A stretch of DNA of 22,947 nt from a virus. The DNA lies in the IMG/VR virus record IMGVR_UViG_3300009164_000375, positions 1 through 22,947 of that record; one strand, given 5' to 3'. This document shows positions 1-16,992 of the stretch, piece by piece. A program made the translations under genes and the position numbers. Position 1 is the first letter of the stretch, and each line of letters opens with the position of its first letter. Below the pieces are notes generated by a model. It was not told the origin of the DNA, searched no databases, and saw only the letters and a list, made by a program, of their open reading frames with translations.

Positions 1-789
1 GCTACAATCAGCAGCCCTTACACCTTTCTTGCTGCTGACCGAGCACAAACGAAAGTCTGGACAGGTGGTGTTGGCACTGGCACATTGCCATTAGCTGCAA
101 CACTGGCCAACAATTGGTTCACCTTAATTAAGAACAACGGCACTGGCACGTTTACGATTTCGACTACAGGCGCACAGCTAATCGACGGACAAGTTAGTAA
201 GCAGTTCAATCCTGACGAGTCTGCTTTTATTATTTGCACAGGTTCAGCATACCTAACTGTCGGATACGGAATTAGCACGAATTACTCGTTCACAGTGTTG
301 ACGAAGCCTGTTACTGGCGGTGCTTATGCGCTAACTTCGAACGAAGCTGGTAACCTTATTCAAGAATACGTTGGCACGTTGGTTAGCAACGTCACAGTGA
401 CTTATCCACCTGTGGTAAACTTGTATGTGGTTTCTAACCAAACAATCGACAATGGATTTACGCTAACGCTAACTACAGGGATCGTTGGTTCAGCAGTAGC
501 GACAATCCCTCCAGGACAGCAAGCCACACTGATTTGCGACGGCACAAACTTCTTGAATGCTAACACTGTGCAAGCTGGTGCGACTTCTTTAAGCATTATC
601 AACGGCACTGTTGGAACACCTGCGATTAACTTTGCAGCAGAAACAAACACTGGTATTTGGAGAGCTGGCGCTGGCGAGTTCGACATTGCTGTTTTGGGTG
701 TTAATCGCTTCTCGCTAACTGCTCTTGGGCTGGCTATAACAGGCACTGGTAATTTCACAGGTGGAATTTCAGGAGGCACATTTACATGA
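1..789 (+). CDS. Tail fibre/appendage-like structural protein, 3' part
   Basis: The reading frame is open from base 1, so the gene starts upstream of the window; the visible part encodes 262 residues. The sequence is rich in Thr, Gly, Ala, Val and Asn, with alternating short beta-like segments and no hydrophobic helix. Near the end is the pattern GTVGTPAINFAAETNTGIW, followed by a stretch ending in Gly/Thr repeats. This NTGI(W/Y) motif is familiar from phage tail-fibre and appendage proteins, where it lies in trimeric beta-structured shafts. The stop codon overlaps the start of the next gene (ATGA at 786-789), which suggests translational coupling. The role in host attachment is inferred from motif and position; the distal receptor-binding end cannot be assigned. 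Confidence 0.7.
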   Translation, partial: ATISSPYTFLAADRAQTKVWTGGVGTGTLPLAATLANNWFTLIKNNGTGTFTISTTGAQLIDGQVSKQFNPDESAFIICTGSAYLTVGYGISTNYSFTVLTKPVTGGAYALTSNEAGNLIQEYVGTLVSNVTVTYPPVVNLYVVSNQTIDNGFTLTLTTGIVGSAVATIPPGQQATLICDGTNFLNANTVQAGATSLSIINGTVGTPAINFAAETNTGIWRAGAGEFDIAVLGVNRFSLTALGLAITGTGNFTGGISGGTFT

Positions 790-2786
790 GTCGTAAAGTA
801 TTTGCCTTAGACACTCTTCCTGGAATCCAGCGAGACGGAACTGTTTTCGATCGTAACTATTACGTTGATGGTCGTTGGGTGAGATTCCAACGTGGTCGTC
901 CTCGTAAGATGGGTGGCTACCGAGAAATTGTAAACAATTTGGCTGGTCCATCGAGAGGCATTTACGTAAACCCACAAAACAATTTCAACAATGTTTACAG
1001 TGGCTACAATAACGGATTGCAGTTGGTGCCGATCGACAATAATGGTGTTGGTTCAGGTGTAACAGATATCACATTGACTGGGTTTACACCGAACACAAAT
1101 AATCTTTGGCAGTTTGACACTTACACCGACACAAACGGCACTGGAAATCAAATTCTGCTCACTCATCCTGGACAAAACCTTACCGACATAAACAATTCGG
1201 TAGAAACTCCAGTTCTCGGCAACGTAATCGGCACGACCACTGCTAGTCCGATCGGTGTGTTTACGATTGCTGCAACGCTAAACTCTACGACCACTGTAAC
1301 AGTTGCTTCGACGACGCAAATTGGAGCTGGACAATCTGTTTCAGGATCAAACATTCCAGCAGGTGCGACTGTTACTGTTGTAAACAATTCCACGACATTT
1401 ACAATCTCCGCTGCAGCTACAGGCTCTGGCTCGGCAACGCTAACTATAAACAACAATATTTCGGTTTCTGGCGGTGTTGTTGTTTTGCATCCATACGTGT
1501 TCGTTTATGGAAATGCAGGTCTAATTCAAAACTGCTCTGCTGGTAACATAAATGATTGGGTCTCTGCAGACGCCAACGAGGTAAACGTGGCGACTGGTAA
1601 GATCGTGCAAGGGTTGCCAGTGCGTGGTGGTACGACTGCTCCTTCAGGCTTATTCTGGTCAACTGATTCTTTGATTCGTGTTTCTTACACCCCGACAACT
1701 GTTAATACAGGTGGCACTCCTTCCACGATCTATTGGCGCTATGACTTAATCTCGAGCCAGTCATCTATCCTTTCCAGCCAGTGCGTTATCGAATACGACG
1801 GAATTTATTACTGGGTTGGTGTTGACCGATTCCTAATGTATAATGGTGTGGTGAAAGAGATTCCGAACGCTTTCAACCAGAACTACTTTTTCGACAATTT
1901 GAACTATGCAGCTCGTGAAAAGGTTTATGTAACCAAAGTGCCTCGTTTCGGAGAGGTTTGGTGGTTCTTCCCTTCTGGCACTTCTACAGAGTGCAACGAT
2001 GCAATCGTTTACAACATCCGTGAAAACTGCTGGTATGACGCTGGCCAAGCAATTGGTTCACGTCGTTCGGCTGGTTACTTCTCGCAGATCTTCCCATTCC
2101 CAATAAATGCAACTTGGGAAACAAATGCGACAGGTGGCGTCGGCGCTTACACAATCGGTAACAACGGCACTGGCTACACCAACGGCACTTATCCTTTGGT
2201 AAACTTGACAGGTGGCACTGGCACAGGCGCTAATGCATCATTCACTGTTTCGGGTGGGGTCGTTACGAATTTTGTGATAGGTTCACGTGGGACAGGTTAC
2301 ACTGTAGGTGACGTGCTCGGGATAAACTTAGCCACTGCTGGAGCAGTATTCCAACTTACAGTTACTTCACTGATGAACTTTGTTTCGCTTTACCAAAATG
2401 AATTTGGCACCGACTCGGTGCAAGGTGTTGTTGCTTCTGCCATCGAAAGTTACTTCGAAACAAACGATCTTGGCTGGGTTGCAGGTGGTCCATCGCAACC
2501 CTCGGCAGTGGGCGAGAATCGTTGGTTGCACATTGAACGCTTGGAACCAGACTTTGTTCAATCAGGAACAATGCAGTGCTTTGTCACTGGTCGCCCATTT
2601 GCGCAAGCAACTGACCAGACTAGTTCTGCTTACGACTTTACACCGACGACCAACAAAATCGACATGCGTGAGCAGAGACGAGAATTGCGTTTAAGATTCG
2701 TGAGTAACGTGCAAGGTGGCAACTACCAACTCGGTAAGGTTATCATTACGGCAGATATCGGCGACGTGAGAGGTTATTCGACATGA
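786..2786 (+). CDS. Tail hub/nozzle-like beta-propeller structural protein (P22 gp10 / T7 gp12-like)
   Basis: This 666-residue protein opens with a segment containing YYVDGRWVRFQRGRPRKMGGY, a pattern typical of phage short-tail hub, nozzle or packaged-DNA-stabilising proteins. The middle (about residues 310-430) has propeller-like repeats: a QCVIEYDGIYYWVGVDRFLMY blade, then EVWWFFPS and AIVYNIRENCWYDAG. Proteins of this type form a ring below the portal and close the DNA exit channel. Two Gly/Thr-rich beta modules appear to be inserted, at about residues 153-224 and 440-525. The ATG overlaps the stop of the upstream gene, and the next gene starts inside this one's stop (2783-2786). The exact family (P22 gp10 or T7 gp12) is uncertain; a tail structural role is fairly secure. 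Confidence 0.7.
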   Translation: MSRKVFALDTLPGIQRDGTVFDRNYYVDGRWVRFQRGRPRKMGGYREIVNNLAGPSRGIYVNPQNNFNNVYSGYNNGLQLVPIDNNGVGSGVTDITLTGFTPNTNNLWQFDTYTDTNGTGNQILLTHPGQNLTDINNSVETPVLGNVIGTTTASPIGVFTIAATLNSTTTVTVASTTQIGAGQSVSGSNIPAGATVTVVNNSTTFTISAAATGSGSATLTINNNISVSGGVVVLHPYVFVYGNAGLIQNCSAGNINDWVSADANEVNVATGKIVQGLPVRGGTTAPSGLFWSTDSLIRVSYTPTTVNTGGTPSTIYWRYDLISSQSSILSSQCVIEYDGIYYWVGVDRFLMYNGVVKEIPNAFNQNYFFDNLNYAAREKVYVTKVPRFGEVWWFFPSGTSTECNDAIVYNIRENCWYDAGQAIGSRRSAGYFSQIFPFPINATWETNATGGVGAYTIGNNGTGYTNGTYPLVNLTGGTGTGANASFTVSGGVVTNFVIGSRGTGYTVGDVLGINLATAGAVFQLTVTSLMNFVSLYQNEFGTDSVQGVVASAIESYFETNDLGWVAGGPSQPSAVGENRWLHIERLEPDFVQSGTMQCFVTGRPFAQATDQTSSAYDFTPTTNKIDMREQRRELRLRFVSNVQGGNYQLGKVIITADIGDVRGYST

Positions 2787-3031
2787 CGATTGCTGTTGTT
2801 TACGACCCTCGCAACCTTACTTGGGATCACTGGGCTTCGCTTATGGTGGAAGCCTATGGTAGTCAACAGCTTGCAATCCCAACAGCAGAGTCTGAGTGGA
2901 GAGATTGGGCGACTGGTTTTTGTGGTATTGGTTTGTTTGAAAGTGATGCTGCTCCGAGTCCTTATGCCTTTGAAAATTGGCAAGATTGGGCTACGGCAGT
3001 GGTCGGTGCTGTTAGTTTACTAAGGGGATAA
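2783..3031 (+). CDS. Small Trp-rich phage protein of unknown function
   Basis: This 82-residue acidic protein begins MTIAVVYDPRNLTWDHWASLM and has several aromatic pairs (WDHW, WRDWATGF, WQDWATAVVG). The two W(R/Q)DWAT units, at about residues 40 and 67, look like an internal duplication. It overlaps the preceding tail gene by ATGA, and its stop lies just before the RBS of the acyl carrier protein gene. No signal peptide or catalytic motif is visible. Its place between tail and ejection-type genes suggests a minor virion or assembly role. That is inference; I do not recognise a characterised family. Confidence 0.75.
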   Translation: MTIAVVYDPRNLTWDHWASLMVEAYGSQQLAIPTAESEWRDWATGFCGIGLFESDAAPSPYAFENWQDWATAVVGAVSLLRG

Positions 3032-3034
3032 GAA

Positions 3035-3322
3035 ATGACTATAAATTTCTTAGAGTTATTCAATGCGGTAGCAGAAGTGGCAAGACCAATTCATGTGAAA
3101 TATAATCCAATTCCGAACATGACGGATAAAATCGCAGACTACGGAATGGACAGTTTGGATATGTTGATGGTGTGCGTTTACATGTGCGAGCTGCACGGCA
3201 TACCTGAAGAAGTGGGTAAAGATTTGCAAGCAACGAATGTGCAAGAATTCCAAGAATTCATCGACAAACACAAAACCCAAGACCCTGAGTCGATCGAAGC
3301 TGCTGTGGAGTATTGCAAATGA
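3035..3322 (+). CDS. Acyl carrier protein
   Basis: This 95-residue acidic protein matches the size and pattern of acyl carrier proteins. The core is DYGMDSLDMLMVCVYMCELH: Ser40 in a DSL motif at the start of helix II is the expected 4'-phosphopantetheine attachment site. The preceding Asp-Tyr-Gly and following hydrophobic positions fit helix II, and a C-terminal helix (EFQEFIDKHK) fits helix IV. ACPs carry growing acyl chains as thioesters and need a host phosphopantetheinyl transferase, which is not encoded here. The start is set by a strong upstream AAGGGGAT ribosome-binding site. The gene overlaps the next one, a ketosynthase, by ATGA, so the two are almost certainly co-translated partners. 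Placement inside a virion operon is very unusual. Family assignment is strong; substrate and target are unknown. Confidence 0.88.
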   Translation: MTINFLELFNAVAEVARPIHVKYNPIPNMTDKIADYGMDSLDMLMVCVYMCELHGIPEEVGKDLQATNVQEFQEFIDKHKTQDPESIEAAVEYCK

Positions 3323-4434
3323 AAATCTTTTTAACAGATTACCGCACTGCTTGGTCGTCAAATGTGAAACTTATCGGCGACATAAAATACCCACAGTCGG
3401 TGCATTTGTTTGAAGACACCTATAAACGAATCGCTACAGGACTGAGTTATGTACCCCATAAAGTCGCAGAGAAAGTTCTTGACCCCGTGCTTTGCGAGAG
3501 CCTACGTCAGGAAGATTGTAAAACTGCTTTTATTCTGGCAAGTGGTAATAGCCATTTTGCTGGCATCGGTGCTCGCTATTATGATAATTCGCTGAGCTAC
3601 ACCTACAAGTTTTTACCCTTTACACTTACCCAAGTTTACGCAGGTCGGATCGCCCAGTCTCTTGGCGCTTGCGACCAAATCACGACCGACTCGTCTGCAT
3701 GCGCTTCCTCGCTAAAGGTAATGATGGACGTGCAAAACCTTATTTGGACTTACAAGTTCGATCGGGTTATTGTTCTTTCCGTGGAAGACGGAGTCTCGAA
3801 TGCAGTGCTAGAGTTCTTCGGCGAAGCAAAAGCCTCACTTTCCTACTCGGAAGAGCAAAACGGCATTCTCCCGTCTGCTTTCGATGGTTCTAACTATGGT
3901 TTCAGAGTTGCCCAAGGCGCTGTTCTGGCAGTTTTCGAGTCTTCCGAGTATATGGAGCGCTCTGGTCATGCCCCAAAAGCCCAAATGTTGGGTGCTTATA
4001 CTGCCTCGGAAAGTTGCAGCAATGCGATCGGGCAGCGTGAAGACGGACAAGGATTTATCAACGCCATAAAAGGCACACTGGAGGTGGCAAATGTTAGCAG
4101 CAATGAAATCGCTGTGGTCAAAACTCACGGCACTGGTACAAAATCTAATAACCAAGCTGAAAAGTCTGCGCTCGAAAAAAGCCTGACAGGGTTCATCGCA
4201 ACATCTTTTAAGCCAACCATCGGTCACACGATGGGTGTTTCGGGACTGCTAGAAACATGTTTGTTGCTCGATTCGATGAAAAAGGGCATAGTTCCTAAGA
4301 TAGAAAATAGAACGGAAAATGACGATGTATTCCTCTCCCATGACCGAGAAATTTCAGGCGGTGTTGTTCTTAGCTTGGCTGCTGGGATGGGCAATGTTTA
4401 CTCGTCTGCGTTGTTTGACACGAGGGTCGCATAA
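3319..4434 (+). CDS. Beta-ketoacyl-ACP synthase (FabF/FabB-like, thiolase fold)
   Basis: This 371-residue protein shows the complete ketosynthase active site: Cys128 in TDSSACASS, His270 in KTHGTGT, and Lys298/His303 in KPTIGHTMG. These correspond to the Cys-His-His triad and catalytic Lys of FabF-type condensing enzymes, which extend an acyl chain by decarboxylative condensation with malonyl-ACP. It is somewhat shorter than E. coli FabF (412 aa). In the C-terminal gating loop, where FabF has a GFGG motif, this protein has GMGN, with Met357 in the gatekeeper Phe position. The start chosen is the ATG at 3319, preceded by GGAG, rather than the TTG two codons earlier. It overlaps the ACP stop and is itself followed by TAATG into the next gene. 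All catalytic residues are present, so an active enzyme is likely. No ketoreductase, dehydratase or malonyl transferase is seen nearby. Confidence 0.9.
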   Translation: MKIFLTDYRTAWSSNVKLIGDIKYPQSVHLFEDTYKRIATGLSYVPHKVAEKVLDPVLCESLRQEDCKTAFILASGNSHFAGIGARYYDNSLSYTYKFLPFTLTQVYAGRIAQSLGACDQITTDSSACASSLKVMMDVQNLIWTYKFDRVIVLSVEDGVSNAVLEFFGEAKASLSYSEEQNGILPSAFDGSNYGFRVAQGAVLAVFESSEYMERSGHAPKAQMLGAYTASESCSNAIGQREDGQGFINAIKGTLEVANVSSNEIAVVKTHGTGTKSNNQAEKSALEKSLTGFIATSFKPTIGHTMGVSGLLETCLLLDSMKKGIVPKIENRTENDDVFLSHDREISGGVVLSLAAGMGNVYSSALFDTRVA

Positions 4435-4928
4435 TGTTTGTAGATAGCAAAAAAGAAATGCTGGACGATATTGCTTTGCTTCGTCTTGCTTTTGAAAACT
4501 CAAAAACACCATACACAGTAGAAGAAGGGATCGCTGCTGTGCTGGCAGAATCTCGTATGCCGAACTGCATTATGATGCGTGAAGGGAATACTCTTTTCAT
4601 TATTCAATATGTTCCAAAGCAGAAAAACCAAGGAATGTTCCGTGCTTTAAATGCGGACACTCCTGCTAATTATTTACAAAACAGTTTAGAATTCATCAAA
4701 GCTGCTGGTCTTGCGGGTTTTACCCTTTTGGTTAGCCAATTTCAAGACCCAGCATTGCTACAGATTTTTAAGTACATAAGCAGGAAACCACCTTTTCCAG
4801 GAATGGGATATGCCGTTCAGGAGATGAGAGAAGGTGGTTACCAAGTGACAGTTAATTTAGGTACTCCAAAAAGCGCCCATGGTGGCACTTTGCCTTCTGC
4901 ACCTAAGAAAGCAAAGGGAGCGTTGTAA
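4434..4928 (+). CDS. GNAT-like protein in the T7 gp13 position (possible acyltransferase)
   Basis: This protein has 164 residues. An early [13 protein letters not shown] helix is followed by [17 protein letters not shown], which resembles GNAT strands and their turn. The segment [21 protein letters not shown], then [10 protein letters not shown] and YQVTVNL, resembles the C-terminal half of GNAT folds. The acyl-CoA binding signature (Q/R-x-x-G-x-G/A) is not clear. In T7-like phages a GNAT-like internal virion protein (gp13) follows the nozzle gene, and this gene fits that position if the ACP and ketosynthase are regarded as insertions. It overlaps both neighbours by TAATG. The alternative, given its partners, is an acyltransferase that uses the acyl-ACP product; this is speculation. 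The tail of the protein is Lys/Ala rich. Confidence 0.55.
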
Positions 4929-7900
4929 TGGGTGGAGTCGTAGAGGCAATCGGAGATGCAATCGGTGACGTTGTTGAAGCAGTCGGTGACGTTGCTGAAG
5001 CGGTCGTTGAAGCAGCGGTTGACGTTGTTGAAGTTGTTGCTGACACAGTTGAAAATACAGTTGAAGCAGCTTTAGATGACCCAGTCGGCACGATCGCAAA
5101 AGTTGCTGCCGTAGCGACTGGTAATGCTTATTTGCTGCCTTACATAAGTGCAGCTAGCGTTGTTGCCAATGGTGGTAACCTTGAACAAGCTGCTATTTCA
5201 TTCGGAACTGCCTATGTTGCGCAAGGTGTAGCGAACTATGTCGCTGCAGATCTTAGCACTGCCAATACATTCGACACAACTCCGTTCAGCGAACAAACTC
5301 GTATGCTTGCTGACCAAACAGGAGGCATGATCGCCAGAGATCAACTCTCAACAGCAATCGGTTCAGCTGCTGGTGCAGCGACAAGGACTGCAATATCAGG
5401 TGGTGATTTCGAAGACATCTTGACCTCTGGTTTGACTAGTGGTGCTGGAAGTTATGTTGGTCAAGAAGTCAAATCTGAAACAGGCGATTTCCTAGGTAAA
5501 ACAGGTAGCACGATTGCTGGTAACGTGGCAGGTGCAACTACAGCTGGGCTATTACAAGGTAAAGATTTCGAAAATGTTTTAGGTAGTTCACTGGTCAACA
5601 ATCTGATTAATGTGAACCTTGCTAACATGAATGTAGGCAAAGGTAACGAGCCTGTCAAGAAAGCGGAAACAGGCAGTGATGTCATGACTGCTTACGAGAA
5701 TTTGAATCCTGCTGACAAAACTTTTGTAGACATGGCAGTTGCTACAGGCACTGACATAAGCACTGCTGTTAATTACGCAATAGCCAATCCTACTTTAGAA
5801 GTGCCTACAGGTGGAACACAGTACGCATCGATCGATAACGGAGTGCGTACGGATGCAGGTGGCGGTGGTGGCGAGCGTGAAGGTTCTGTAACAGTTGAAG
5901 GTGTTCGAGAACAAACAGAAGAAAAGCCAGAGTTCAAATACGGAGCAAATGGCGAAGTTTATGCTCTTGAACCAGATGGATCATACGCAAAACTGGATTA
6001 CGTAAAACTCGACTCGCAAGGAAAAATCCTTACCTCTGACACAAAAGGAAATTGGACTGAAACAGGTGACTACGCAAAAGGCACAGAAGCATTGCGTTCC
6101 GCTGCTGACGACCCTAACAAACTGAGTTCTGAAGAGTTGGGTAAAGGTTATTACTACGCTTCTGACGGCACAATGCGCACGCCAGAAGGCTCAATGCTTA
6201 TAAAAATTTATGGAACTAGCGACAATGTAACTTCTCCTGAAGAAGCTGAAGTAACTCCAGGATCAGAGTTCGACAAAGCAATGACCAAGATCGGTGGTTT
6301 GCTAGGTCTTGGTGGTGGCGATCCAAATTCTCCCTATCGTGCATTGTTCGGTGGCGGTGCTTACATAAAAGGTGAGCTGGACATGTCTGCTGCTTCTCCA
6401 ATTGGTTGGGGAACGAAAGAAGAAAAAGACGAAGCGCTTAACTACATGGAAATTGTTTTACAAGATCCGAACGCTACAGTCCAAGACAAACAGTTAGCTC
6501 AGCAAGCGATAAACCGAATCAACGAAAGCAAAGTGACAGGACGTATAGGTGGTGGCGAGCCTACGACTGGCGGTGCAGAGAAAACTTTAGGTGGCGACAC
6601 TGGCGGTTCGAGCGCAACTGCAGGCACGACAAGCACCTCTGGCTCTTCGAGTGCAATGAACGCTTCGACTGCAAATTACATTTCTAGCACTGTTAAGAAT
6701 TTAGAAGATTCAGGCTACAAAGACTCAGACATTGTCACGCTGCTTACCAATACATTCGGGTTGGATCAAAACCGAGCAAGCAATTTGACCAATGTTGTTT
6801 CGACCAATGGTGTGGATGCTGGCAACGACTTCTTGCTTATGTCTTCGAGTTTGACTGGCACTGGTAATAAAACAACAGGGACAGGAACAACAGGCACTGG
6901 CACGACTGGCACTGGCACGACTGGCACTGGCACGACAGGAACAGGCACTGGCACAGGTTCGACAACGACTGGCACTGGCACAGGTTCGACCACTGGCGCT
7001 GGGACAAGCACTGGAACAGGAACAGGCACTGGAACAGGAACAGGCGATACAGTTGGAACAGGAACAGGCACTGGAACAGGCACTACAGTCGGGACTGGCG
7101 GTGGCGCAGGAACAGGCACTGGCACTGGTGGTGGCACTGGAGACGGAACAGGCACTGGTGGCACTGGTACTGCTGGAACAGGCACTGGCACAGGAACAGG
7201 CACTGGAACAGGCACTGGTGGCGGAAGCACTGGTAGTTCCGCTGTAACTGCTTTGTCTTATGGAACTTCAGGCGCTCCCAGCTCAGGCTCACAAACAGGC
7301 GCTTTGCCGAAAGGATTAAACGCATCTTATCTTTCTGCTGCACCAATTCAGGACTCAAATATGAACCTAGGACAATTAAAACAACTTTATCCACAATTAG
7401 CTGCAGTTGACCCAAGGATTCTTTCAACCTTGACAAGTAAGAGCAATATGAATGCGCCTGCAGGTGGCGCAACAGGGTTTACTTCTGGCAATTTGATTAC
7501 ACCTTCAGCTGGCTATCCTGCTCAAGCGTCGGGTCAAAATCCTGGTGGGGTTGCTTCGTTCATTCCGACAAATGATTTGATGTCTGGTTCTTACGATGCA
7601 CTTTCCTCTGCGGGACTGCGCTCACTCGGTGCTTTGCCAAGTACTGGTTCGGTTTATGGTCTTAAAAAGGGTGGCTCTGTAAAGAACAAACGAGCACTAC
7701 CACACGTGCCAGAGTTTATCACTGGTAAGACTGGTCACTACGTAGAAGGAAAAGGCGACGGACAATCCGACGATATTCCAGCAATGCTAGCAGACGGAGA
7801 ATACGTATTCGATGCAGATACTGTAGCAGCACTCGGAAATGGATCTTCCAAAGCAGGTGCGCAATTGTTAGACCATTTCCGAGAAGCACTTAGAGATCAC

Positions 7901-7987
7901 AAGCGCTCAGCACCGACGGATAAAATCCCTCCAGCTGCTTCGCCATTGGCTTATATGAAAGCAGCATTGAAAAAACACAAAGGATAA
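4928..7987 (+). CDS. Large internal/ejection-type virion protein with Thr-Gly repeat tract
   Basis: This 1019-residue protein has three visible parts. Residues 1-60 are a Val/Glu/Ala/Asp repeat ([17 protein letters not shown] and similar units) predicted to form an amphipathic helix. Residues 60-240 are Ala/Gly-rich with helices such as [20 protein letters not shown]. From about residue 643 to 768 there is a low-complexity tract of Thr-Gly repeats. The C-terminal part (913-1019) has a Lys/Gly start followed by a conserved phage pattern, [20 protein letters not shown] then [13 protein letters not shown]. That pattern recurs in phage structural proteins, often at the end of tail or internal proteins. 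It overlaps the previous stop by TAATG, with a GGGAG RBS. By position it may be the equivalent of T7 internal virion proteins that leave the capsid with the DNA. The function is inferred. Confidence 0.72.
6854..7231 (+). repeat. Thr-Gly coding minisatellite inside the 1019-aa protein
   Basis: About 380 bases are built from short units such as ACTGGCACGACAGGA and ACAGGAACAGGCACTGG, encoding alternating Thr and Gly with occasional Ser, Ala, Val and Asp. Unit lengths are multiples of three, so copy-number changes would keep the frame. The tract acts as a flexible linker between the globular middle and the conserved C-terminal domain. The opposite strand is open across it, reading Pro-Val repeats, but that is a shadow. 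Confidence 0.9.
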
Positions 7988-7990
7988 ATC

Positions 7991-9004
7991 ATGGCATTGA
8001 CACAAGGCTCACCACTACCGAATATAACAACCACGCAAGGTCAAACGACCACTGCGCCAAGTTTTTATACAGACTATCTAAGCAACCTCGCTCAGCAAGG
8101 CACGACAGGTGCGCAAGGTGCAACTTATGTCGGTGCGACTCCGCTGCAACAGCAAGCGTTTCAAGCTACAGCTGCGAATGTCGGTAACTACCAACCTGCG
8201 CTAACTAGTGCCACAAACCTTGCGACTGGTGTTGGTAATTCAAACATTGCGAACAATGTAAGCAATTTCATGACTCCTTACACCCAGAATGTTGTCGACG
8301 CAATCGGCACACTGGGTCAGCGTAACATTCAACAATACCTCGCTCCTGGAGCTACTGCAGCTGCAGTTGGTTCGGGTCAGTTTGGTTCTAAGCGTGGCGC
8401 TGAAGTTCTTGGGCAAGCGCTTAACACTGGTATGCAAAATATCAATGCTGCTCAGGCGCAGGCACTGCAAACAGGATACAGCCAAGCATTGCAAGCAGCA
8501 CAGAACCAAACAGCAAATCAGTTAGCAGCGAGCCAACAGCTCGGCAATTTAGCAGGTACGACTCAAAACTTAGGTCTTGGTGACATCAATGCGCTCGCTA
8601 CGCTCGGTGCTCAGCAACAGCAAATTGATCAAAATGCAAGCCTGTTCCCCTTGCAAACTGCAAACACTGCAGCTGGTATCTTGCGTGGCTACACAATCCC
8701 GACCTCTGTCAACTCGACTTACACTGGTCCAATTCCTGGAGCGTATTCTGCTTCTCCATTGGCTCAGATTGCTGGTCTTGGCTCTGTGCTCGGTGCAGTT
8801 AGCAATACTAAACTTGGTGGCACTATTGGATCAGGTCTCGGCAGTCTTTGGGATTACTTTGCTAAAGGTGGTACTGGCGCTGAACCTACTTTAGACTTCA
8901 ATAGCGGAGATACAACAGGGAATATAATTTATGACACAGATGGTGGTTACGCTACTTCTGGTGGAAATGTCGTTGACCCTAACGAATATAGTGGAGGAGT
9001 TTAA
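7991..9004 (+). CDS. Gln/Ala-rich virion protein, probably internal or ejection protein
   Basis: This 337-residue protein is rich in Gln, Ala, Thr and Asn. It carries FYTDYLSNLAQQG near the N terminus and YVGATPLQQQAFQATAANVG soon after. The central helical region contains AVGSGQFGSKRGAEVLGQAL and long Gln/Ala helices (QTGYSQALQAAQNQTANQLA), suggesting a coiled coil of several turns. The C terminus is Gly/Asp-rich and ends in a short acidic tail. The GSGQFGSKRG element recurs in conserved phage structural proteins of this type, but no catalytic residues are obvious. It has a good RBS (AAGGA) and follows the 1019-aa gene by three bases. By context it is a companion to the ejection-type proteins on either side. 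Confidence 0.65.
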   Translation: MALTQGSPLPNITTTQGQTTTAPSFYTDYLSNLAQQGTTGAQGATYVGATPLQQQAFQATAANVGNYQPALTSATNLATGVGNSNIANNVSNFMTPYTQNVVDAIGTLGQRNIQQYLAPGATAAAVGSGQFGSKRGAEVLGQALNTGMQNINAAQAQALQTGYSQALQAAQNQTANQLAASQQLGNLAGTTQNLGLGDINALATLGAQQQQIDQNASLFPLQTANTAAGILRGYTIPTSVNSTYTGPIPGAYSASPLAQIAGLGSVLGAVSNTKLGGTIGSGLGSLWDYFAKGGTGAEPTLDFNSGDTTGNIIYDTDGGYATSGGNVVDPNEYSGGV

Positions 9005-9006
9005 TC

Positions 9007-10722
9007 ATGGCACTACCCACTGGGGCAATTCCCGCAGCACCGCCAAATCTCGGAGCTGACGAGAGTGGTAAGAAAGAGTATTTTGATGCGCTTACAAAAA
9101 CGCTAAAAGCGCTCGAAGACCGCTCGGAAAATTCTATCAATTTGTGGAATGTGGCTGGGCAGTTTTTGAATCCTGGACGCACAGGTTCGTTCGGCGAAGC
9201 ATTAGGCAACGTGGCAGGTTCTGTCGGACGAGACGTCGAAAAGCAGTTAGACATGGCACTTCCAATCGCTCAGATGCGTGCTAACATCGCTGGACAGAAA
9301 TACCAAGTCGAAAACGAAACAAAAGCACTTAACATGTTTGCGAACGCAATCGGTGTAACACCTGCTCAGGCTGCTGGCGCATTAGAGTCTGGCAATTTGA
9401 CACCCGACATGCTGAGCAAGATCCCTTCAAATTTGTATGTAGCTATCAATAAACTCGATCCTAAACTTGGTGACAGCATCAAGAATGGTTTCAACATGGA
9501 CGTTGAGCGTCGCAAGTTGGTTAACGACGACATCAAGAATGGCTTGAGCGTTGCGGATATGATCGCTAAGTATGGCGAAGGAATCAAGGTTTATCTGCCG
9601 TCGAACATGCCGAGCAGCAGCAAACCTGCAGAACCAAAAGCAACAGAAACGAAACCTGTAGAAGAGCCAGTCAAAAAACTACTCGCTCCGAAAGACCTTG
9701 CTTTGCAAATCGAAAACGATTTCGGAATAAAACTCGGACCACTAGCTTTAGAGCGCACCAGAGAGCAACAGCAAGACCTTATCAATCGAGCTGGAAAAGG
9801 CGAAAAAGGGATTTATAAACCTTCTCCTCTTGTGGATGGAAAAGACGTTTACCACGAAAATGCAATCGATGTTCCGCAAACTGTTCCAGAGTCTTACTTG
9901 CGTGCTCGTGGTTATTACAGACCTGACAAGAATGATCCCGTGCATGCAGTGCCACTTCCTGGATTTGGCCAGAGTGAAAAGAAAACTTCTTCAGCGCCTG
10001 CAGTTTCCAAACCTGTCGACATTAGCAAAGTTACAGTCGGATCTGACATTAGCGAGCTTCCATTAGCTGCACAAGCAGAAGTTAAAAAGACTCGTACAAA
10101 CAGCCAAGACAAAATGTACGAAGTTCATCGTTCTGAGATCGCTGCTTACAATCCGCAAATGACCGATGAAACTGCCAATCGTTTACGTGAATTGCACGAC
10201 ATCGCTAGCAAGAGACCGAACATTTTCGGTTTGATGCAACAGCAAGGTTTACTCTCTGCGTTGAAAAACTCTGCACAGGAGGGAATTCAATTCGGTCGTC
10301 TTGGCTCGATCGCTTTGCCAGTGCAAACTTTCGAACAGAATATGAAACTAAGTCCTGCTGACCAAAGGATTTTGCGTCGTGCTTCACAGTTGATGGCTGA
10401 GCAATTTTTCGAAAATGCAAAAGCTGATAAATCTGTTCTTGGTCCGCAGATCTCGAACGCAGACGCTCAGTTCTTGCAGCGACCAATGGTTACTGAAAAA
10501 GACGCTGCATCGACAGTTCAGTATTGGGCTAAAAATCATTTGTTGCTTAATGCGCAACGTGGCGAATTGTTCAAATCTTTGCAGCAGCATGACGAGAGAT
10601 TTGGAGCGAATGTTCCATTCGGAAGTTACTTTGGTTCTGATCCTTACGTTAACATTGTTAAGAAATATAGCGATTTGAATAAACAATTGCGTCAACGCTA
10701 TCCTGATTTTGGAGCGAAATAA
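9007..10722 (+). CDS. Large virion protein of unknown function (571 aa)
   Basis: The N-terminal part of this 571-residue protein has helix-rich stretches such as YFDALTKTLKALEDRSENS and NLWNVAGQFLNPGRTGSFG, then KQLDMALPIAQMRANIAGQK. A Pro/Lys/Glu-rich linker lies at about residues 200-225, and a less ordered middle follows. The last 180 residues are a helical domain (ADQRILRRASQLMAEQFFEN, TVQYWAKNHLLLNAQRGELF). There is no signal peptide or hydrolase motif that I can recognise. A GGAGG ribosome-binding site precedes the ATG, and the stop overlaps the next start (TAATG). Position after two structural genes and helical content suggest an internal or ejection protein. The function is unassigned. 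Confidence 0.7.
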   Translation: MALPTGAIPAAPPNLGADESGKKEYFDALTKTLKALEDRSENSINLWNVAGQFLNPGRTGSFGEALGNVAGSVGRDVEKQLDMALPIAQMRANIAGQKYQVENETKALNMFANAIGVTPAQAAGALESGNLTPDMLSKIPSNLYVAINKLDPKLGDSIKNGFNMDVERRKLVNDDIKNGLSVADMIAKYGEGIKVYLPSNMPSSSKPAEPKATETKPVEEPVKKLLAPKDLALQIENDFGIKLGPLALERTREQQQDLINRAGKGEKGIYKPSPLVDGKDVYHENAIDVPQTVPESYLRARGYYRPDKNDPVHAVPLPGFGQSEKKTSSAPAVSKPVDISKVTVGSDISELPLAAQAEVKKTRTNSQDKMYEVHRSEIAAYNPQMTDETANRLRELHDIASKRPNIFGLMQQQGLLSALKNSAQEGIQFGRLGSIALPVQTFEQNMKLSPADQRILRRASQLMAEQFFENAKADKSVLGPQISNADAQFLQRPMVTEKDAASTVQYWAKNHLLLNAQRGELFKSLQQHDERFGANVPFGSYFGSDPYVNIVKKYSDLNKQLRQRYPDFGAK

Positions 10723-11894
10723 TGGCTGAAGAAAAAAAGAAAGACGAACTAGATGACGTTTTGGGCGTTGACTCAAAATCTGACTCTGAATACAAACTTG
10801 ACGAAGTCGATCCTCTTTTTGCAAAGAAGGAAGAAAAAGAGTTTTCTGACAAACCGATCGAAGCGCCGAACTATAGCAATGTCCCCGAAGCTGGCGCTGC
10901 TGGCGCTGTTGTCGGTGCTGTAGCAGGGAGAGTTCTACCGAAAGTAGAAGCTCCTATGCCGAAAGGCTTGGACACTGCAAAAGTAAATGCGTCTGTTGCA
11001 CAAAAGTCTGTGCAGCGACAAGTTGAAGCGCTGAAAGATACAAAAGCAAGTCAAACTCTTAAGATAGACGAAACGCTAAAAGAATTAAACAATGCAAGGG
11101 CAACTGCTTCTGAAGCAGAGCGTAAACTTGCACTTGCTCGTGAAAATGCAATTAGACTAAATGCTTTACCTGAACCACCGCCAGCAGCAGAAGTGCCAAA
11201 AGTTTCTGATTTAGATTATCCTGGAAAAGCCTCTGCAGGAGCAGAGCGCCACGCCAACAAGATGTCTGAAATTCGTGCAACAAATCGTGTTCAACGTGGA
11301 CTTGAAGGTGTTAAAGAATTGCAAGGTGCAGGTAATGCTCCTGGATACACTCGTGTAAGTCGAATAATTGTTCCTGATTCTTTAGCAAATGCTTCTGTTT
11401 ACAATGCTGAGCAATTGCTTGCACAAAAACAATTAGCCGAAGCTGAAGCTGCTTACAAAACTGCTCAAGCGAACGCAAACAGTATGCAAGCAAAATGGAA
11501 AGGTCTTTCAGGCTCAACTCCAAAATCTGTCGTAACTGCAGAGACTGGTGTGGCTCGTGCCACAGAAAAAGCAGCAACTGCAGCTGATAAATTAGCAGAG
11601 TTGCAAGCAGCTAAGCCAACAGGCTTACAACGAGCTGGTGCACTGGTTTCTAAAATTCCTTTCCTTAACACTCTTTCGGGTGGTTTGGTCGGTGCTGAAT
11701 TGATGAATGCAATCGAGCAAGCCAATCGAGGTGAAAATTTCGACGCAGCAATGTCGGGTATGGGTGCTGCGGGTGGAGCGCTTATGATGGTTCCGAACCC
11801 ATATGCAAAAGTGGCTGGCGCAGTTTTAAGTGCACCACCCTTAGCGTATCAAGGCTACCAAGCTGCAAGAGATTACTTCTCTCCTAAGCAGTAA
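10722..11894 (+). CDS. Coiled-coil virion protein with hydrophobic Gly/Ala C terminus
   Basis: The 390-residue protein has an extremely acidic and Lys-rich N terminus (about residues 1-45). A short Gly/Ala-rich stretch, AAGAVVGAVAGRV, follows. Long Lys/Glu/Ala/Gln helices come next, at about residues 85-150 and 220-300, in register for coiled coils. The last 80 residues are hydrophobic and Gly/Ala-rich: IPFLNTLSGGLVGAELM, GMGAAGGALMMVPNP and KVAGAVLSAPPLAYQ. These could insert into membrane. That fits an ejection protein which helps to form the DNA channel across the envelope. It is the last gene of the structural operon and is followed directly by two terminators. Function is inferred from composition and location. 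Confidence 0.7.
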   Translation: MAEEKKKDELDDVLGVDSKSDSEYKLDEVDPLFAKKEEKEFSDKPIEAPNYSNVPEAGAAGAVVGAVAGRVLPKVEAPMPKGLDTAKVNASVAQKSVQRQVEALKDTKASQTLKIDETLKELNNARATASEAERKLALARENAIRLNALPEPPPAAEVPKVSDLDYPGKASAGAERHANKMSEIRATNRVQRGLEGVKELQGAGNAPGYTRVSRIIVPDSLANASVYNAEQLLAQKQLAEAEAAYKTAQANANSMQAKWKGLSGSTPKSVVTAETGVARATEKAATAADKLAELQAAKPTGLQRAGALVSKIPFLNTLSGGLVGAELMNAIEQANRGENFDAAMSGMGAAGGALMMVPNPYAKVAGAVLSAPPLAYQGYQAARDYFSPKQ

Positions 11895-11931: not shown

Positions 11932-12074
11932 GACCCCACTTCGGTGGGGTCTTTTTTAATCAGCGCCGAAGACCATGCTTCTAGCCAGATGTTGTAAGGG
12001 TCGTTGAGCATGTCTTCGTTGCCAGTGCGCTTCAACAATGCAACCCAATCCTCGAATTCTTTTTTAGGATCCAT
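11916..12074 (-). CDS. Small acidic protein at the end of the early operon
   Basis: A 52-residue ORF starts at the ATG at 12074 (MDPKKEFEDWVALLKRTGNE). A good GGAAGGTGG ribosome-binding site lies inside the last codons of the polymerase gene, whose stop it overlaps by 11 bases. A longer version from 12125 is less likely because it would sit wholly in the end of the polymerase gene and lacks this signal. The N-terminal half looks like an amphipathic helix. The last residues, PTEVGSKHSP, are read through both terminator hairpins of the converging operon. No family is recognised, but the RBS and spacing support it as real. Confidence 0.55.
   Translation of the reverse strand: MDPKKEFEDWVALLKRTGNEDMLNDPYNIWLEAWSSALIKKDPTEVGSKHSP
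11932..11957 (+). terminator. Strong intrinsic terminator with UUCG tetraloop
   Basis: GACCCCAC and GTGGGGTC form a perfect 8-bp stem around TTCG, followed by six T residues (11952-11957). It would terminate + strand transcription from the structural operon. On the opposite strand the sequence lies inside the end of a small ORF, where there is no T tract immediately after the stem, so it is mainly a + strand terminator. Confidence 0.92.
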
Positions 12075-13302
12075 CAGATACCACCTTCCATTTTTCAATT
12101 TGTAACATACGGATGCCGTTACCACCCATCCGACCTCGTATCAATAGAACAGCACCGATCGGCACTGCCTCTAAGATTTCTTTGCCCATCTTTTCGTAGT
12201 CCTTACGACGCACTGTGGCGATTGCTAAGCCAGTGTCGTCTTTGATGGTTACGTTAAGCCAATAACGGAACTGTCGGTCGTAGTCGGTAATCACGCCACC
12301 ACGCTTCATTACGTTACCAGTTTCCAGAGCATCACGTAAGTTCTTTTCCGTTAGCACCCCGATCAAAACTCGCTCCGATCCGTCTGCTTCAAGGTCGTTA
12401 CACTTTGTAAACTCCCAGCCCTCTTTCAATCCGTACTTGCGTGGGTTGGCATACCATTCCCCAAACCGAGCAGTGAATGGGTATGGATCTGGCCATTTTA
12501 GTCTTGGGTTTTCAAGTTTGGCGGTTATACTTGGGGGTAGATCTTTTTTTGTAACTCTTGAATCGAGGACTTTTTGCGCCATCTTTGGACCAATCCCGTG
12601 GACTGCGGTAAGCCCACCATAAATTGCATCTCCTTTAGCTGCCCAGCTGGCTTCCGAACGATCTTTGTCGAACGCTACGTATTTGAAACCTTCGGCTGTA
12701 ATTTCTCGGAGGAGTTTGAGGACTGCGTCATCGTCGGAGGTGTGGCGCAAGGAAGCAGCACTGAACTGCAGTGGATGGTAGTACTTCAACCAAGCTGTCC
12801 ACGCAGAGATGACGGAGTAAGCAGCTGCATGTGCCTTGACGAAAGCGTACGACCCTGCATGCATCATTGAGTTCCAAACCTCAAGTGCGGATTCTTTGTT
12901 GATGTTTTGTTGCTCAGCACCATCCAAAAACTTGTCTCGAAATTGATCGAAGTATTCTTTGCCCAACGACTTAGACATTGCTCGACGCAATGCAGTCAGC
13001 TCTGGCCAACCAAGCAAGCCAATGTCCCGACCAAGGAACAAGATCTGCTCTTGATAAATAACAACACCTTCAGTTTGCTCAGTCCACTTTTTATGAATGT
13101 CATGATGATACAACGGAACATCCAACCCTCTCCGCACGTCGAGAAACTTCTTCGCACCACCAGACTGCAATGGTCCAGGACGAGCGAGGGAAGTGAGTGC
13201 GACAATGTCGTTGAAATTCTTGACTTGGAATTGCCTGAGCAACTGCCGAGCAGCATCACCCTCGAGCTGGAAAACACCAGTGATCTTTTGACTGTTTAGC
13301 AA
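12064..13302 (-). CDS. dnaE: C-terminal part of DnaE-like DNA polymerase III alpha (after in-frame stop)
   Basis: This frame continues the polymerase without a frameshift: the upstream part ends at TAA (13306-13308), followed by GAA and then TTG (13300-13302), the assumed start. It contains the fingers-domain signatures ITGVFQLEGDA (residues 7-17), ALTSLARPGPLQSGG and GVVIYQEQ. A MHAGSYAFVKAHAAAYSVIS segment matches the GYGFNKSHSAAYA region of DnaE. Further on are a helix-hairpin-helix (LTAVHGIGPKMAQKVLDSR) and an OB-fold-like end (RVLIGVLTEKN to MLQIEKWKVV). In C-family polymerases these parts grip nucleotide and template. The segment is 412 aa and lacks the catalytic Asp residues, which are in the upstream part, so it is unlikely to work alone. 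Reinitiation, readthrough, or a nonsense change or sequencing error are all possible. Confidence 0.8.
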   Translation of the reverse strand: MLNSQKITGVFQLEGDAARQLLRQFQVKNFNDIVALTSLARPGPLQSGGAKKFLDVRRGLDVPLYHHDIHKKWTEQTEGVVIYQEQILFLGRDIGLLGWPELTALRRAMSKSLGKEYFDQFRDKFLDGAEQQNINKESALEVWNSMMHAGSYAFVKAHAAAYSVISAWTAWLKYYHPLQFSAASLRHTSDDDAVLKLLREITAEGFKYVAFDKDRSEASWAAKGDAIYGGLTAVHGIGPKMAQKVLDSRVTKKDLPPSITAKLENPRLKWPDPYPFTARFGEWYANPRKYGLKEGWEFTKCNDLEADGSERVLIGVLTEKNLRDALETGNVMKRGGVITDYDRQFRYWLNVTIKDDTGLAIATVRRKDYEKMGKEILEAVPIGAVLLIRGRMGGNGIRMLQIEKWKVVSDGS

Positions 13303-13305
13303 TTC

Positions 13306-14793
13306 TTAGATCTTTGGGTCGTGCACGTCGATATCGGTAATCTTTTTGCCGACTTCGTCTAGGGTTTCTTGCACAATGTCGAGCGTCTTCAGTCCTAATG
13401 CGTCCAGCTTCACAAGGTTTAACGACTCTGCTTGGTATTTGTCGATCTGCCCGATTCCCTCTGCAGTGACGGAACAGTAGTCTGCGACTGGCGTATTGCA
13501 AATGATCACACCTGCAGCGTGCACACCTGCATGGGATGCGTGTCCTTCGAGCGCACCTGCATTCCTGAATCCAGGATGTTTGTCGAGCAACTCTCTGCCA
13601 GCCTTGAGCGCACCCATCGTGTCTTCAAGACAGAATGCTGCACGTGAGTCGCCTGATGACCGCTCAATCATGTTGTCTCGGATCTCGGCAGTTTCCCAAA
13701 CTGGAATCTTCATGCGCTTGCCGACGTTGGCGAGAATTGATTTGGGCTTCAGCTTGTTGACGTTGCCCAGTCTTGCAATGTTGGTCTCACCATACGTTTC
13801 TTTTAGGTAAGTAAACAATTCGTCCCTGCGGTCTCCAGGAAAGTCCATATCGATATCGGGTAAGTCGATACGAGTAACGTCCACAAAACGCTCGAACAAC
13901 AATCCGTGCTCAATCGGGTCGAGTTCGGTTATGCCGAGCAGATAGCAGATTATCGAACCAGACGACGATCCACGTCCAGGACCAACGAGCATTCGCTCAC
14001 GTGCCCAGCGCATTAAGTCATAAACCATCAAAAAGTAGGACTCGAACTGCTTTTCACGAATAACACCCAGTTCACGCTGTAATCTGGCTTCGTATTCCTC
14101 ACCGAAACCCTTTGGAAAGCGCCAGCTGATACCTTTCCTTGCCTCTGCCTCTAAATCGCCTTCTACGACCATATTTTTGGCCACTGGCAGGGTTACAGGC
14201 TCAAATCGTTCAGCGATTTCCTCCCAACTGACTGAAAATGGATGAATTTCGTCAATTTCACGCTGTGACCACCAATGTTGCGAGTGTGCACCCAATCGCA
14301 CCCCTAAAAGTTCAGCGTACTTGCGGTCTGTTGGGGCAGGGTAGCGCACGTCTGAAACAAAGAACAGTGGTAGGCTCTTAGCACGAGCTACTTCGATATT
14401 TATTTTATTTTTCAATGGATTGAGTGGGTGCAAGTCCACGACCATGTCTTGCGCTTTGACTCGCTCGATTTCGGCAGTAAACGGAAACACCAACAGATTG
14501 TCGGAAAACTCTGTGTCGTAAGTTATGCCTGCACTGTGGCGGTAAAGTTCCCGCAGACCCTCTTGATTCTTGGCGAGCACCTTGATGGAGCGCTCTTCGT
14601 CGCCCACGAGGAGTTCTGCGCCAAGAATCGGTTGGATACCTGCCTTTTCTGCAGCCTTGAAAAAAGGCACATGACCCCACGTGCCAACGTCACAAATTGC
14701 TGCTTTGGTATAACCCAACTCGCTGGCTCGTGCTACGACCCTGCCAATCGGTCCAAAACAGTTACCAAAAGTGAACTCAGTTCTTGTTATCAT
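13306..14793 (-). CDS. dnaE: DnaE-like DNA polymerase III alpha, N-terminal part with catalytic palm
   Basis: The 495-residue product starts with a PHP-like domain (residues 1-100) in which the usual HxH metal ligands are absent. The pattern CDVGTWGHVPFFKAAEKAGI and LGAELLVGDEER is still clear. The polymerase core follows: VGPGRGSSSGS (270-280), LPDIDMDFPGDRR (311-323) with Asp313 and Asp315 as the catalytic pair, HASHAGVHAAGVII (418-431), and LVKLDALGLKTL with Asp464 as the third catalytic Asp. The gene ends at an in-frame TAA after DIDVHDPKI. In DnaE proteins the next residue is typically Tyr, as in DPKTYELL, so a full protein of 909 aa would result from one codon change. It overlaps the DnaQ-like gene by 17 bases, consistent with a polymerase-proofreader pair. 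Replication of the phage genome is the likely role. Confidence 0.88.
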   Translation of the reverse strand: MITRTEFTFGNCFGPIGRVVARASELGYTKAAICDVGTWGHVPFFKAAEKAGIQPILGAELLVGDEERSIKVLAKNQEGLRELYRHSAGITYDTEFSDNLLVFPFTAEIERVKAQDMVVDLHPLNPLKNKINIEVARAKSLPLFFVSDVRYPAPTDRKYAELLGVRLGAHSQHWWSQREIDEIHPFSVSWEEIAERFEPVTLPVAKNMVVEGDLEAEARKGISWRFPKGFGEEYEARLQRELGVIREKQFESYFLMVYDLMRWARERMLVGPGRGSSSGSIICYLLGITELDPIEHGLLFERFVDVTRIDLPDIDMDFPGDRRDELFTYLKETYGETNIARLGNVNKLKPKSILANVGKRMKIPVWETAEIRDNMIERSSGDSRAAFCLEDTMGALKAGRELLDKHPGFRNAGALEGHASHAGVHAAGVIICNTPVADYCSVTAEGIGQIDKYQAESLNLVKLDALGLKTLDIVQETLDEVGKKITDIDVHDPKI

Positions 14794-16760: not shown

Positions 16761-16992
16761 TTTCTTTGCTCACTTTCTTTTGTAAAACAGCAACAATTTG
16801 CAATATTTGGTCAGGGGTAAACTTGTGATTGGTTATGTAGTCTTCAACAACATGACAAGCAAAGTTTACACCACGATCAAAACAGTCTAACCCCTTAGCG
16901 ATTGCAACTTCCTCGTGTACGAGTCGGCATTCACCAGTTTCTTGATCACATTCAGATCCTGAAGGACGTCGTCCAGTAATATATTCCGCCAT
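16750..16992 (-). CDS. Small conserved-looking protein between flavoprotein and ThyX
   Basis: This 80-residue protein has a Cys pair near the N terminus (ECDQETGECRLVHEE, about residues 14-28). More Cys follow, as LDCFDRG and NFACHVVEDYI, and the end is a helix, TPDQILQIVAVLQKKVSKEN. The ATG at 16992 has an AGGGAG ribosome-binding site. The gene overlaps the flavoprotein by 106 bases at its start and ThyX by 11 at its end. Such a large overlap leaves open a shorter start, such as a GTG near Val25, but the RBS favours the ATG. Function is unknown. Confidence 0.6.
   Translation of the reverse strand: MAEYITGRRPSGSECDQETGECRLVHEEVAIAKGLDCFDRGVNFACHVVEDYITNHKFTPDQILQIVAVLQKKVSKENES

What the first reader, a model, noticed from the sequence alone, without database searches (positions are those of the whole stretch)
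3035..4434. ACP and complete ketosynthase pair inside a phage structural operon
The sequence shows an ACP with a DSL phosphopantetheine site (Ser40) and a ketosynthase with the full Cys128, His270, Lys298, His303 set, coupled by an ATGA overlap. Both neighbours are virion-type genes on the same strand, so the pair would be expressed late with the particle. Host lipid genes captured as metabolic helpers would more likely sit in early regions. The late placement suggests that an acyl chain is built for the particle, for an injected protein, or to alter host membrane during assembly or lysis. I know of no described phage system of this kind.
Basis: partly seen in the sequence, partly recalled or inferred. 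Interest (0 to 1): 0.88.

Follow-up and report, generated by a model that had tools for sequence, protein, structure and literature searches.

The report
Phage acyl-chain module beside ejection genes
A large, widespread group of uncultured water phages carries its own acyl carrier protein and ketosynthase, almost always placed just before an acyltransferase-fold gene and a DNA-ejection-type gene, which suggests that these viruses may attach a fatty chain to a particle protein; the function is untested.

Summary
Window 3035-3322 encodes an acyl carrier protein (ACP, Ser40) and 3319-4434 a ketosynthase (KS; Cys128, His270, Lys298, His303). The two overlap by ATGA inside a tightly packed late-type operon (786-11894). 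It is not a one-off: one KS scan found at least 571 related IMG/VR contigs. Among 156 distinct KS proteins the catalytic set is invariant (156/156), an ACP lies directly upstream in 155/155, and 142/146 are followed at once by a GNAT-fold gene (window 4434-4928). The next gene, ejection/tape-like, starts M-[S/G/A]-AVV... with a Val-rich amphipathic segment. Eighty sister-phage loci (Caulobacter phage GB2A type) lack ACP, KS and GNAT gene, and lack that N-terminus. ACP stays beside the GNAT gene in two lineages without KS. No PPTase, ketoreductase or malonyl-transferase gene was found, so host enzymes would be needed. Best model (inferred): host-charged phage ACP, with KS tailoring, donates an acyl group through the GNAT-fold protein to the ejection protein, working like HlyC/CdiC but not a member. 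Function is untested.

The parts
786..2786 (+). nozzle / P22-gp10-like stabilization (virion) gene
   Evidence: phrog_3287 virion structural protein 1.2e-27; homologue annotated 'phage stabilization protein' in MW202545.1
2783..3031 (+). orf82, small conserved ORF between nozzle and ACP
   Evidence: conserved in most module loci and in Caulobacter phage GB2A gp066, E 3e-16
3035..3322 (+). acyl carrier protein, 95 aa; phosphopantetheine Ser40 at 3152-3154
   Evidence: D39-S40 in 149/149 distinct relatives; ACP fold by AlphaFold + Foldseek
3319..4434 (+). beta-ketoacyl-ACP synthase (KS), 371 aa; Cys128 3700-3702, His270 4126-4128, Lys298 4210-4212, His303 4225-4227
   Evidence: PF00109/PF02801 above cut-off; catalytic residues 156/156
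4434..4928 (+). orf164, GNAT-fold protein (putative acyltransferase or degenerate GNAT); RALNAD at 4641-4658 in the P-loop position
   Evidence: AlphaFold pLDDT 87.6; the 50 listed PDB fold hits are GNAT-type acetyltransferases, best E 5e-5, prob 1.00; directly downstream of KS in 142/146
4928..7987 (+). gp1019, ejection/tape-measure-like protein
   Evidence: phrog_6090 tail length tape measure 1e-6; C-terminal residues 926-1010 homologous to GB2A gp065, E 4e-20
4931..5047 (+). amphipathic Val-rich N-terminal segment ([20 protein letters not shown]...), proposed acyl acceptor region
   Evidence: conserved after orf164, absent in sister phages without the module
7991..9004 (+). gp337, DNA-ejection-like protein
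   Evidence: phrog_4287 DNA ejection protein 0.0016; homologue GB2A gp064
9007..10722 (+). gp571, late-operon protein of unknown function
   Evidence: syntenic in relatives
10722..11894 (+). gp390, last gene of the operon
11932..11951 (+). intrinsic terminator-like hairpin ending the operon
   Evidence: 8-bp stem, 6 GC pairs, T-run

Best explanation
The pair is the donor half of a phage protein-acylation module. Shown: an ACP with an intact phosphopantetheine site and a KS with a complete catalytic set, genetically coupled, under purifying selection, usually directly followed by a GNAT-fold gene and by an ejection-type protein with an amphipathic N-terminus. Inferred: (1) host PPTase converts the phage ACP to holo-ACP; (2) host enzymes, or the phage KS condensing with malonyl-ACP, place a particular (possibly 3-oxo or elongated) acyl chain on it; (3) the GNAT-fold orf164 uses this acyl-ACP, not acyl-CoA, to acylate the ejection protein, most likely at or near the amphipathic N-terminus exposed after Met removal; (4) the lipidated helix helps the ejected protein insert into or cross the host membrane. 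It would work like HlyC/CdiC-type activation, with a private ACP and KS.
For: KS catalytic set 156/156, ACP Ser 149/149; dN/dS 0.07-0.09; ACP beside KS 155/155 and orf164 beside KS 142/146. orf164 is GNAT-fold and lacks the canonical CoA P-loop [QR]xxGx[GA] at the strand 4/helix 3 junction in 141/141, as acyl-ACP-using RtxC enzymes lack CoA-binding elements (PMC8339906). ACP stays directly upstream of orf164 with no KS in L324/L325 (65.7-kb record G038, no ketoacyl-synt domain found) and in L157 (KS deleted to a remnant). The protein after orf164 starts M-[S/G/A] in 162/172 with an amphipathic segment (mean hydrophobic moment 0.42) versus 0.13 and 0/53 for that motif in sister phages; 0/80 sister loci carry ACP, KS or orf164. 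No phage PPTase, ketoreductase or malonyl transferase in 17-18 long records, so the pair is not a lipid pathway on its own.
Against: No biochemistry or virion proteomics was found for this group. In six records the pair lies in the replication region, apart from orf164. orf164 occurs without adjacent ACP/KS in about 20 loci, although most are fragments and three of those records carry the pair elsewhere. No invariant catalytic His in orf164: His in 132/141, Gln58 in the window. Position 2 is Pro in a few distant members, which cannot be N-acylated in the usual way. Module and N-terminus could simply share descent: two sister clades, few independent events. KS identities track gp337 (r 0.93) better than orf164 (r 0.79), so co-variation does not single out orf164.
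Confidence: 0.36

Rival explanations
1. Auxiliary metabolic genes: the pair feeds host fatty-acid synthesis, shifting chain length or unsaturation of host membranes late in infection, or sustaining lipid supply; its position is a convenient expression slot.
For: ACP and KS are the two non-redox parts of the elongation cycle and could work with host FabD/FabG/FabZ/FabI; the relocated pair beside a SNF2-type helicase is unlinked to virion genes; acpP-fabF-fabG were proposed as AMGs in Rhodobacteraceae prophages (PMC8224337).
Against: The KS is a phage-exclusive family: one near relative in 84,980 species genomes, on a 37.6-kb contig with the same ACP-KS-GNAT order and so probably phage, not a recent host capture. 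142/146 sit beside the GNAT-fold gene. ACP persists without KS beside orf164. Host cells already have abundant ACP and FabF.
Confidence: 0.27
2. Host-takeover by sabotage: excess KS and ACP drain malonyl-CoA, phosphopantetheine or acyl-ACP and so block host lipid synthesis.
For: From general knowledge, not tested here: overproduced FabF blocks fatty-acid synthesis in E. coli. All catalytic residues are kept.
Against: A sabotage gene would be expected early; most copies are in the late operon. Does not explain the fixed link to orf164 or ACP without KS.
Confidence: 0.09
3. The pair makes a small diffusible acyl product (signal or antibiotic-like), with orf164 as an acyl-homoserine-lactone- or N-acyl-amino-acid-synthase-like GNAT.
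For: GNAT-fold enzymes of the LuxI and FeeM types use acyl-ACP (general knowledge); KS of similar size act in cispentacin biosynthesis (AmcF, 2.6e-23).
Against: orf164 is embedded among virion genes and is kept in phages with no adjacent ACP/KS; no reductase or export genes were seen nearby; no LuxI/FeeM family match.
Confidence: 0.08
4. ACP and KS are non-catalytic particle or assembly components, for example ACP as a regulatory subunit.
For: A phage ACP was detected by LC-MS/MS in preparations of unrelated Erwinia jumbo phages (PMC7760394); ACPs act as subunits in other complexes.
Against: Cys, two His and Lys invariant in 156/156 and Ser40 in 149/149 would not be kept for a purely structural role.
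Confidence: 0.07

Closest known systems
RTX toxin-activating acyltransferases (HlyC, ApxC, CyaC) and CdiC of class IV CDI systems (PMC8339906, PMC8510554)
   Same: GNAT-fold protein lacking standard CoA-binding elements, encoded next to a large protein that must interact with membranes; acyl-ACP is the donor there and is proposed here
   Different: No sequence relation found; no invariant catalytic His/Asp dyad shown; no dedicated ACP or KS is described for them in the passages read; acceptor there is an internal Lys, here proposed N-terminal
FabF/KAS II beta-ketoacyl-ACP synthases
   Same: Both Pfam domains, Cys-His-Lys-His set, GHxxGxxGxxE motif
   Different: 371 aa instead of about 412; C-terminal GFGGTN gate replaced by AAGMGN; far below the NCBIfam FabF equivalog cut-off (98 vs 494 bits); phage-exclusive family
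Phage-encoded ACP genes (Alteromonas phage R22Y, Erythrobacter phage R6L, Vi01-like and Eneladusvirus phages)
   Same: ACP carried by a tailed phage; detected in a virion preparation in Eneladusvirus
   Different: Reported as ACP genes, not as a fixed ACP-KS-GNAT block beside ejection genes in the passages read
acpP-fabF-fabG in three Rhodobacteraceae prophages (PMC8224337)
   Same: ACP and KS genes side by side in a reported prophage
   Different: Same gene order as the host fab operon and includes fabG, so possibly host DNA; not compared by sequence here
Uncultured phage ctpbd312 (MW202545.1, Manatee Spring)
   Same: Same gene order; KS 61% and ACP 43% identical; KS annotated 3-oxoacyl-ACP synthase
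   Different: Only annotated; no study of the pair found
Caulobacter phages GB2A, RW, RLK, KcrB
   Same: Homologous nozzle, orf82, gp337 and C-terminal part of gp1019 (tested in GB2A)
   Different: GB2A has no ACP, KS, orf164 or amphipathic N-terminus: the empty counterpart

Membership tests
Beta-ketoacyl-ACP synthase (thiolase superfamily) | ketoacyl-synt N and C domains above curated cut-off | tested here: met
   PF00109 35.9 bits and PF02801 55.4 bits, cut-offs 20.8; 19/19 members match both
Beta-ketoacyl-ACP synthase (thiolase superfamily) | Cys-His-His triad plus Lys | tested here: met
   156/156 distinct sequences
FabF equivalog (TIGR03150) | score above equivalog cut-off | tested here: not met
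   98.2 bits versus 493.75
FabF equivalog (TIGR03150) | C-terminal GFGGTN gating loop | tested here: not met
   invariant A355-G356-M357-G358-N359 in alignment A4
Beta-ketoacyl-ACP synthase (thiolase superfamily) | decarboxylative condensation activity | not testable with these tools
   needs enzyme assay
Acyl carrier protein | DSL phosphopantetheine site | tested here: met
   Asp39-Ser40 149/149, Leu41 144/149
Acyl carrier protein | ACP fold | tested here: met
   AlphaFold pLDDT 93.6; leading PDB matches are ACPs, prob up to 0.98, although Foldseek E only 0.09
Acyl carrier protein | PF00550 / TIGR00517 above cut-off | tested here: not met
   window copy no PF00550 hit; 5/16 relatives weakly, best 0.0043; TIGR00517 16.5 vs 70.45 bits
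Acyl carrier protein | is phosphopantetheinylated | not testable with these tools
   no phage PPTase in 17 records, so host AcpS/Sfp would be needed
GNAT acyltransferase (orf164) | GNAT fold | tested here: met
   best E 5e-5, prob 1.00
GNAT acyltransferase (orf164) | CoA pyrophosphate loop [QR]xxGx[GA] | tested here: not met
   0/141 at the strand 4/helix 3 position; RALNADTA instead
Toxin-activating acyltransferase (HlyC/CdiC) | conserved His/Asp catalytic dyad | tested here: not met
   no invariant His; one column 132/141 His, Gln in the window; correspondence to the HlyC His not established
Toxin-activating acyltransferase (HlyC/CdiC) | acyl-ACP-dependent protein acylation | not testable with these tools
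   needs co-expression and mass spectrometry
Auxiliary metabolic gene | recent relatives among host metabolic genes | tested here: not met
   one near relative in 84,980 species genomes, on a probable phage contig; at least 571 viral contigs
Auxiliary metabolic gene | alters host metabolism during infection | not testable with these tools
   no isolate carrying the pair is known in the collections searched

The most novel reading that the evidence does not exclude
A virus-encoded protein-lipidation system: the phage makes its own acyl-ACP with a dedicated ketosynthase and uses a GNAT-fold virion-operon enzyme to fatty-acylate the amphipathic N-terminus of an ejected protein, so that it can enter the host membrane during DNA delivery.
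Probability: 0.3. Interest if true: 0.93.

Novelty: new variant of a known kind. Interest (0 to 1): 0.8.

Why it matters
How short-tailed phages push proteins and DNA through the cell envelope is still an open question. If these phages lipidate an ejection protein with their own ACP and ketosynthase, that would be a new way for a virus to handle membranes and a compact, transferable lipidation cassette. Even if the role is metabolic, a phage-exclusive ketosynthase family found in hundreds of environmental viral contigs, kept beside ejection genes, had gone without a proposed function (its PHROG is 'unknown function').

Tried and rejected
One-off capture, frameshifted relatives or lost catalytic Cys: rejected. 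Recent host origin: no close cellular relative. Lipid pathway carried by the phage: no PPTase, SDR ketoreductase or malonyl transferase. Special co-variation of KS with orf164: first look suggested it (0.885 vs 0.72 with nozzle), but with gp337 as control it failed (gp337 0.93 vs orf164 0.79), so it is not used as evidence. 'Always between nozzle and ejection genes': rejected. KS tree rooting to tell which location is older: the only outgroup sits on a branch of about 10 substitutions per site, so the root is unreliable. Orf164 homology to the GNAT-like gene of phage ctjtQ328: no significant profile match. Hits to Listeria, Enterococcus, Staphylococcus and Pseudomonas 'phage' records (20-28% identity) look like host FabF in unannotated records and were ignored. 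Papers with exact phrases for a phage-encoded ACP or KS: none.

Full report
WHAT IS THERE. The ACP runs 3035-3322 and the KS 3319-4434, joined by ATGA. The KS start is ATG 3319; the ORF lister's TTG 3313 is just the first possible start. Pfam places both KS domains above their cut-offs; the best curated models are FabF-type but far below equivalog cut-offs. Two PHROGs of unknown function match KS (1e-41) and ACP (7e-4). The ACP is weak by sequence, but a 16-sequence AlphaFold model (pLDDT 93.6) gives the ACP fold, and the leading solved-structure matches are ACPs, though with modest Foldseek E-values (0.09 and above).

OPERON. Genes from the nozzle (786) to gp390 (11894) are on one strand with gaps between -4 and +3 bases around the pair; the strong terminator-like hairpin is at 11932-11951. 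The nozzle matches a virion structural PHROG, gp1019 a tape-measure PHROG in a short stretch, gp337 a DNA-ejection PHROG weakly. The sequence supports one polycistronic late-type unit; expression was not measured.

DISTRIBUTION. In the annotated phage collection only MW202545.1 (uncultured, Manatee Spring) has both genes. Of 84,980 species genomes only one contig has a near relative, a 37.6-kb contig binned as Balneolaceae with the same ACP-KS-GNAT order, so probably phage. Among 156 distinct KS sequences: ACP directly upstream 155/155, orf164 directly downstream 141/146, with one more (L202) missed only through ORF calling, so 142/146. KS Cys/His/Lys/His 156/156; ACP Asp39-Ser40 149/149. dN/dS medians: KS 0.068, ACP 0.089, orf164 0.078, nozzle 0.074. 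Loci were found by KS or orf164 searches, so the counts are conditional on those queries.

EXCEPTIONS THAT INFORM. Six records (L030, L040, L226, G017, G023, G026) carry ACP-KS after a SNF2-type helicase and before a small HTH-like ORF; in G017, G023 and G026 the virion cluster with orf164 lies elsewhere. A reverse search with orf164 found loci with neither gene adjacent (for example L133, L150, L152, L158, L292, L293, L301-L303, L312-L314, L316-L322, L328) and three with ACP but no KS: L324/L325 (record G038, 65.7 kb, no ketoacyl-synt domain) and L157, where KS is deleted to a remnant. So KS was never seen without ACP, while ACP can stay beside orf164 without KS. Most KS-less records are fragments, so true absence is shown only for long records, and completeness of G038 itself is inferred from size.

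ORF164. The AlphaFold model (pLDDT 87.6) has GNAT topology and the 50 listed solved-structure matches are GNAT-type enzymes. Its most conserved stretch, RALNADTA, is at the P-loop position, yet the canonical CoA loop is absent there in 141/141. This resembles RtxC enzymes, which are GNAT-fold, lack CoA elements and use acyl-ACP (PMC8339906), but the catalytic dyad of that family was not found. Viral fold matches are mostly uncharacterised, including a DUF2824 protein. From memory, T7 gp13 and P22 gp14 occupy a similar place before ejection genes; this was not tested.

THE NEXT PROTEIN. After orf164, 172 distinct N-termini mostly have Ser (87), Gly (58) or Ala (17) at position 2 and continue as a Val-rich amphipathic segment such as [16 protein letters not shown]; mean hydrophobic moment 0.42. 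In 80 loci of the sister group (GB2A type) there is no ACP, KS or orf164, and among 53 distinct N-termini after orf82 none has this motif (moment 0.13). Homology of gp1019 to GB2A gp065 is limited to the C-terminal 85 residues. The amphipathic N-terminus therefore goes with orf164 and the module. This could be one shared ancestry, so it is association, not proof.

HOW IT MOST LIKELY WORKS. Shown: intact donor proteins, gene coupling, GNAT neighbour, co-occurring amphipathic target candidate, no phage PPTase, SDR ketoreductase or malonyl transferase in 17-18 long records. Inferred: host PPTase activates ACP; KS adjusts the chain; orf164 transfers it to the ejection protein; lipid helps membrane insertion. 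CdiC lipidating CdiA to improve target-cell binding (PMC8510554) is the nearest logic. I give this 0.36; host-lipid modulation is the main rival at 0.27, favoured by the helicase-site copies.

KNOWN WORK. Phage ACPs are reported (PMC11705849, PMC5463345, PMC3220722), one was detected by LC-MS/MS in jumbo-phage preparations (PMC7760394), and fabF is mentioned in a Fonsibacter myophage (PMC7029224) and a lake vOTU (PMC12783922). No paper in the open library that was searched describes this block; subscription papers were not searchable.

Noticed in passing
12064-14793 (-): A DNA polymerase III alpha-type gene is interrupted by an in-frame TAA (13306-13308), giving two ORFs; the same region is open in relatives L002 (18276-20636) and L004 (18872-21112).
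   Followed up: partly
L030, L040, L226, L252, L340, L341: ACP-KS relocated downstream of a SNF2-type helicase and upstream of a small HTH-like ORF (about 103 aa); which location is older could not be rooted.
   Followed up: partly
L157:4639-5456: KS lost by deletion: ACP followed by a short KS remnant (IKTHGAETKLNN) and then orf164.
   Followed up: yes
L133:1129-1286, L150:4283-4440, L152:4830-4991: Where the pair is missing, a non-coding stretch of about 160 bases with conserved dyad-like elements (GGGTCTGAATAGGCCT...AGGCCT...GGACCC) sits between orf82 and orf164.
   Followed up: no
16887-17951 (-): A Rossmann-like protein (phrog_4828, 8e-92, unknown function; MIILGAGLSGLIAA start) whose listed start overlaps the upstream DUF932 gene; the likely start is internal.
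   Followed up: no
6766-7230: Long Gly-Thr low-complexity repeat inside gp1019; the protein's length varies widely among relatives.
   Followed up: no
phage records OR846615, OR848865, OR846827, OQ572406 and others: Unannotated 'phage' records of Listeria, Enterococcus, Staphylococcus and Pseudomonas hold FabF-like genes, probably host DNA contamination.
   Followed up: no
21247-22590 (+): SNF2-type helicase in the window; in the helicase-site lineages ACP-KS follows a gene of this type, here it does not.
   Followed up: partly
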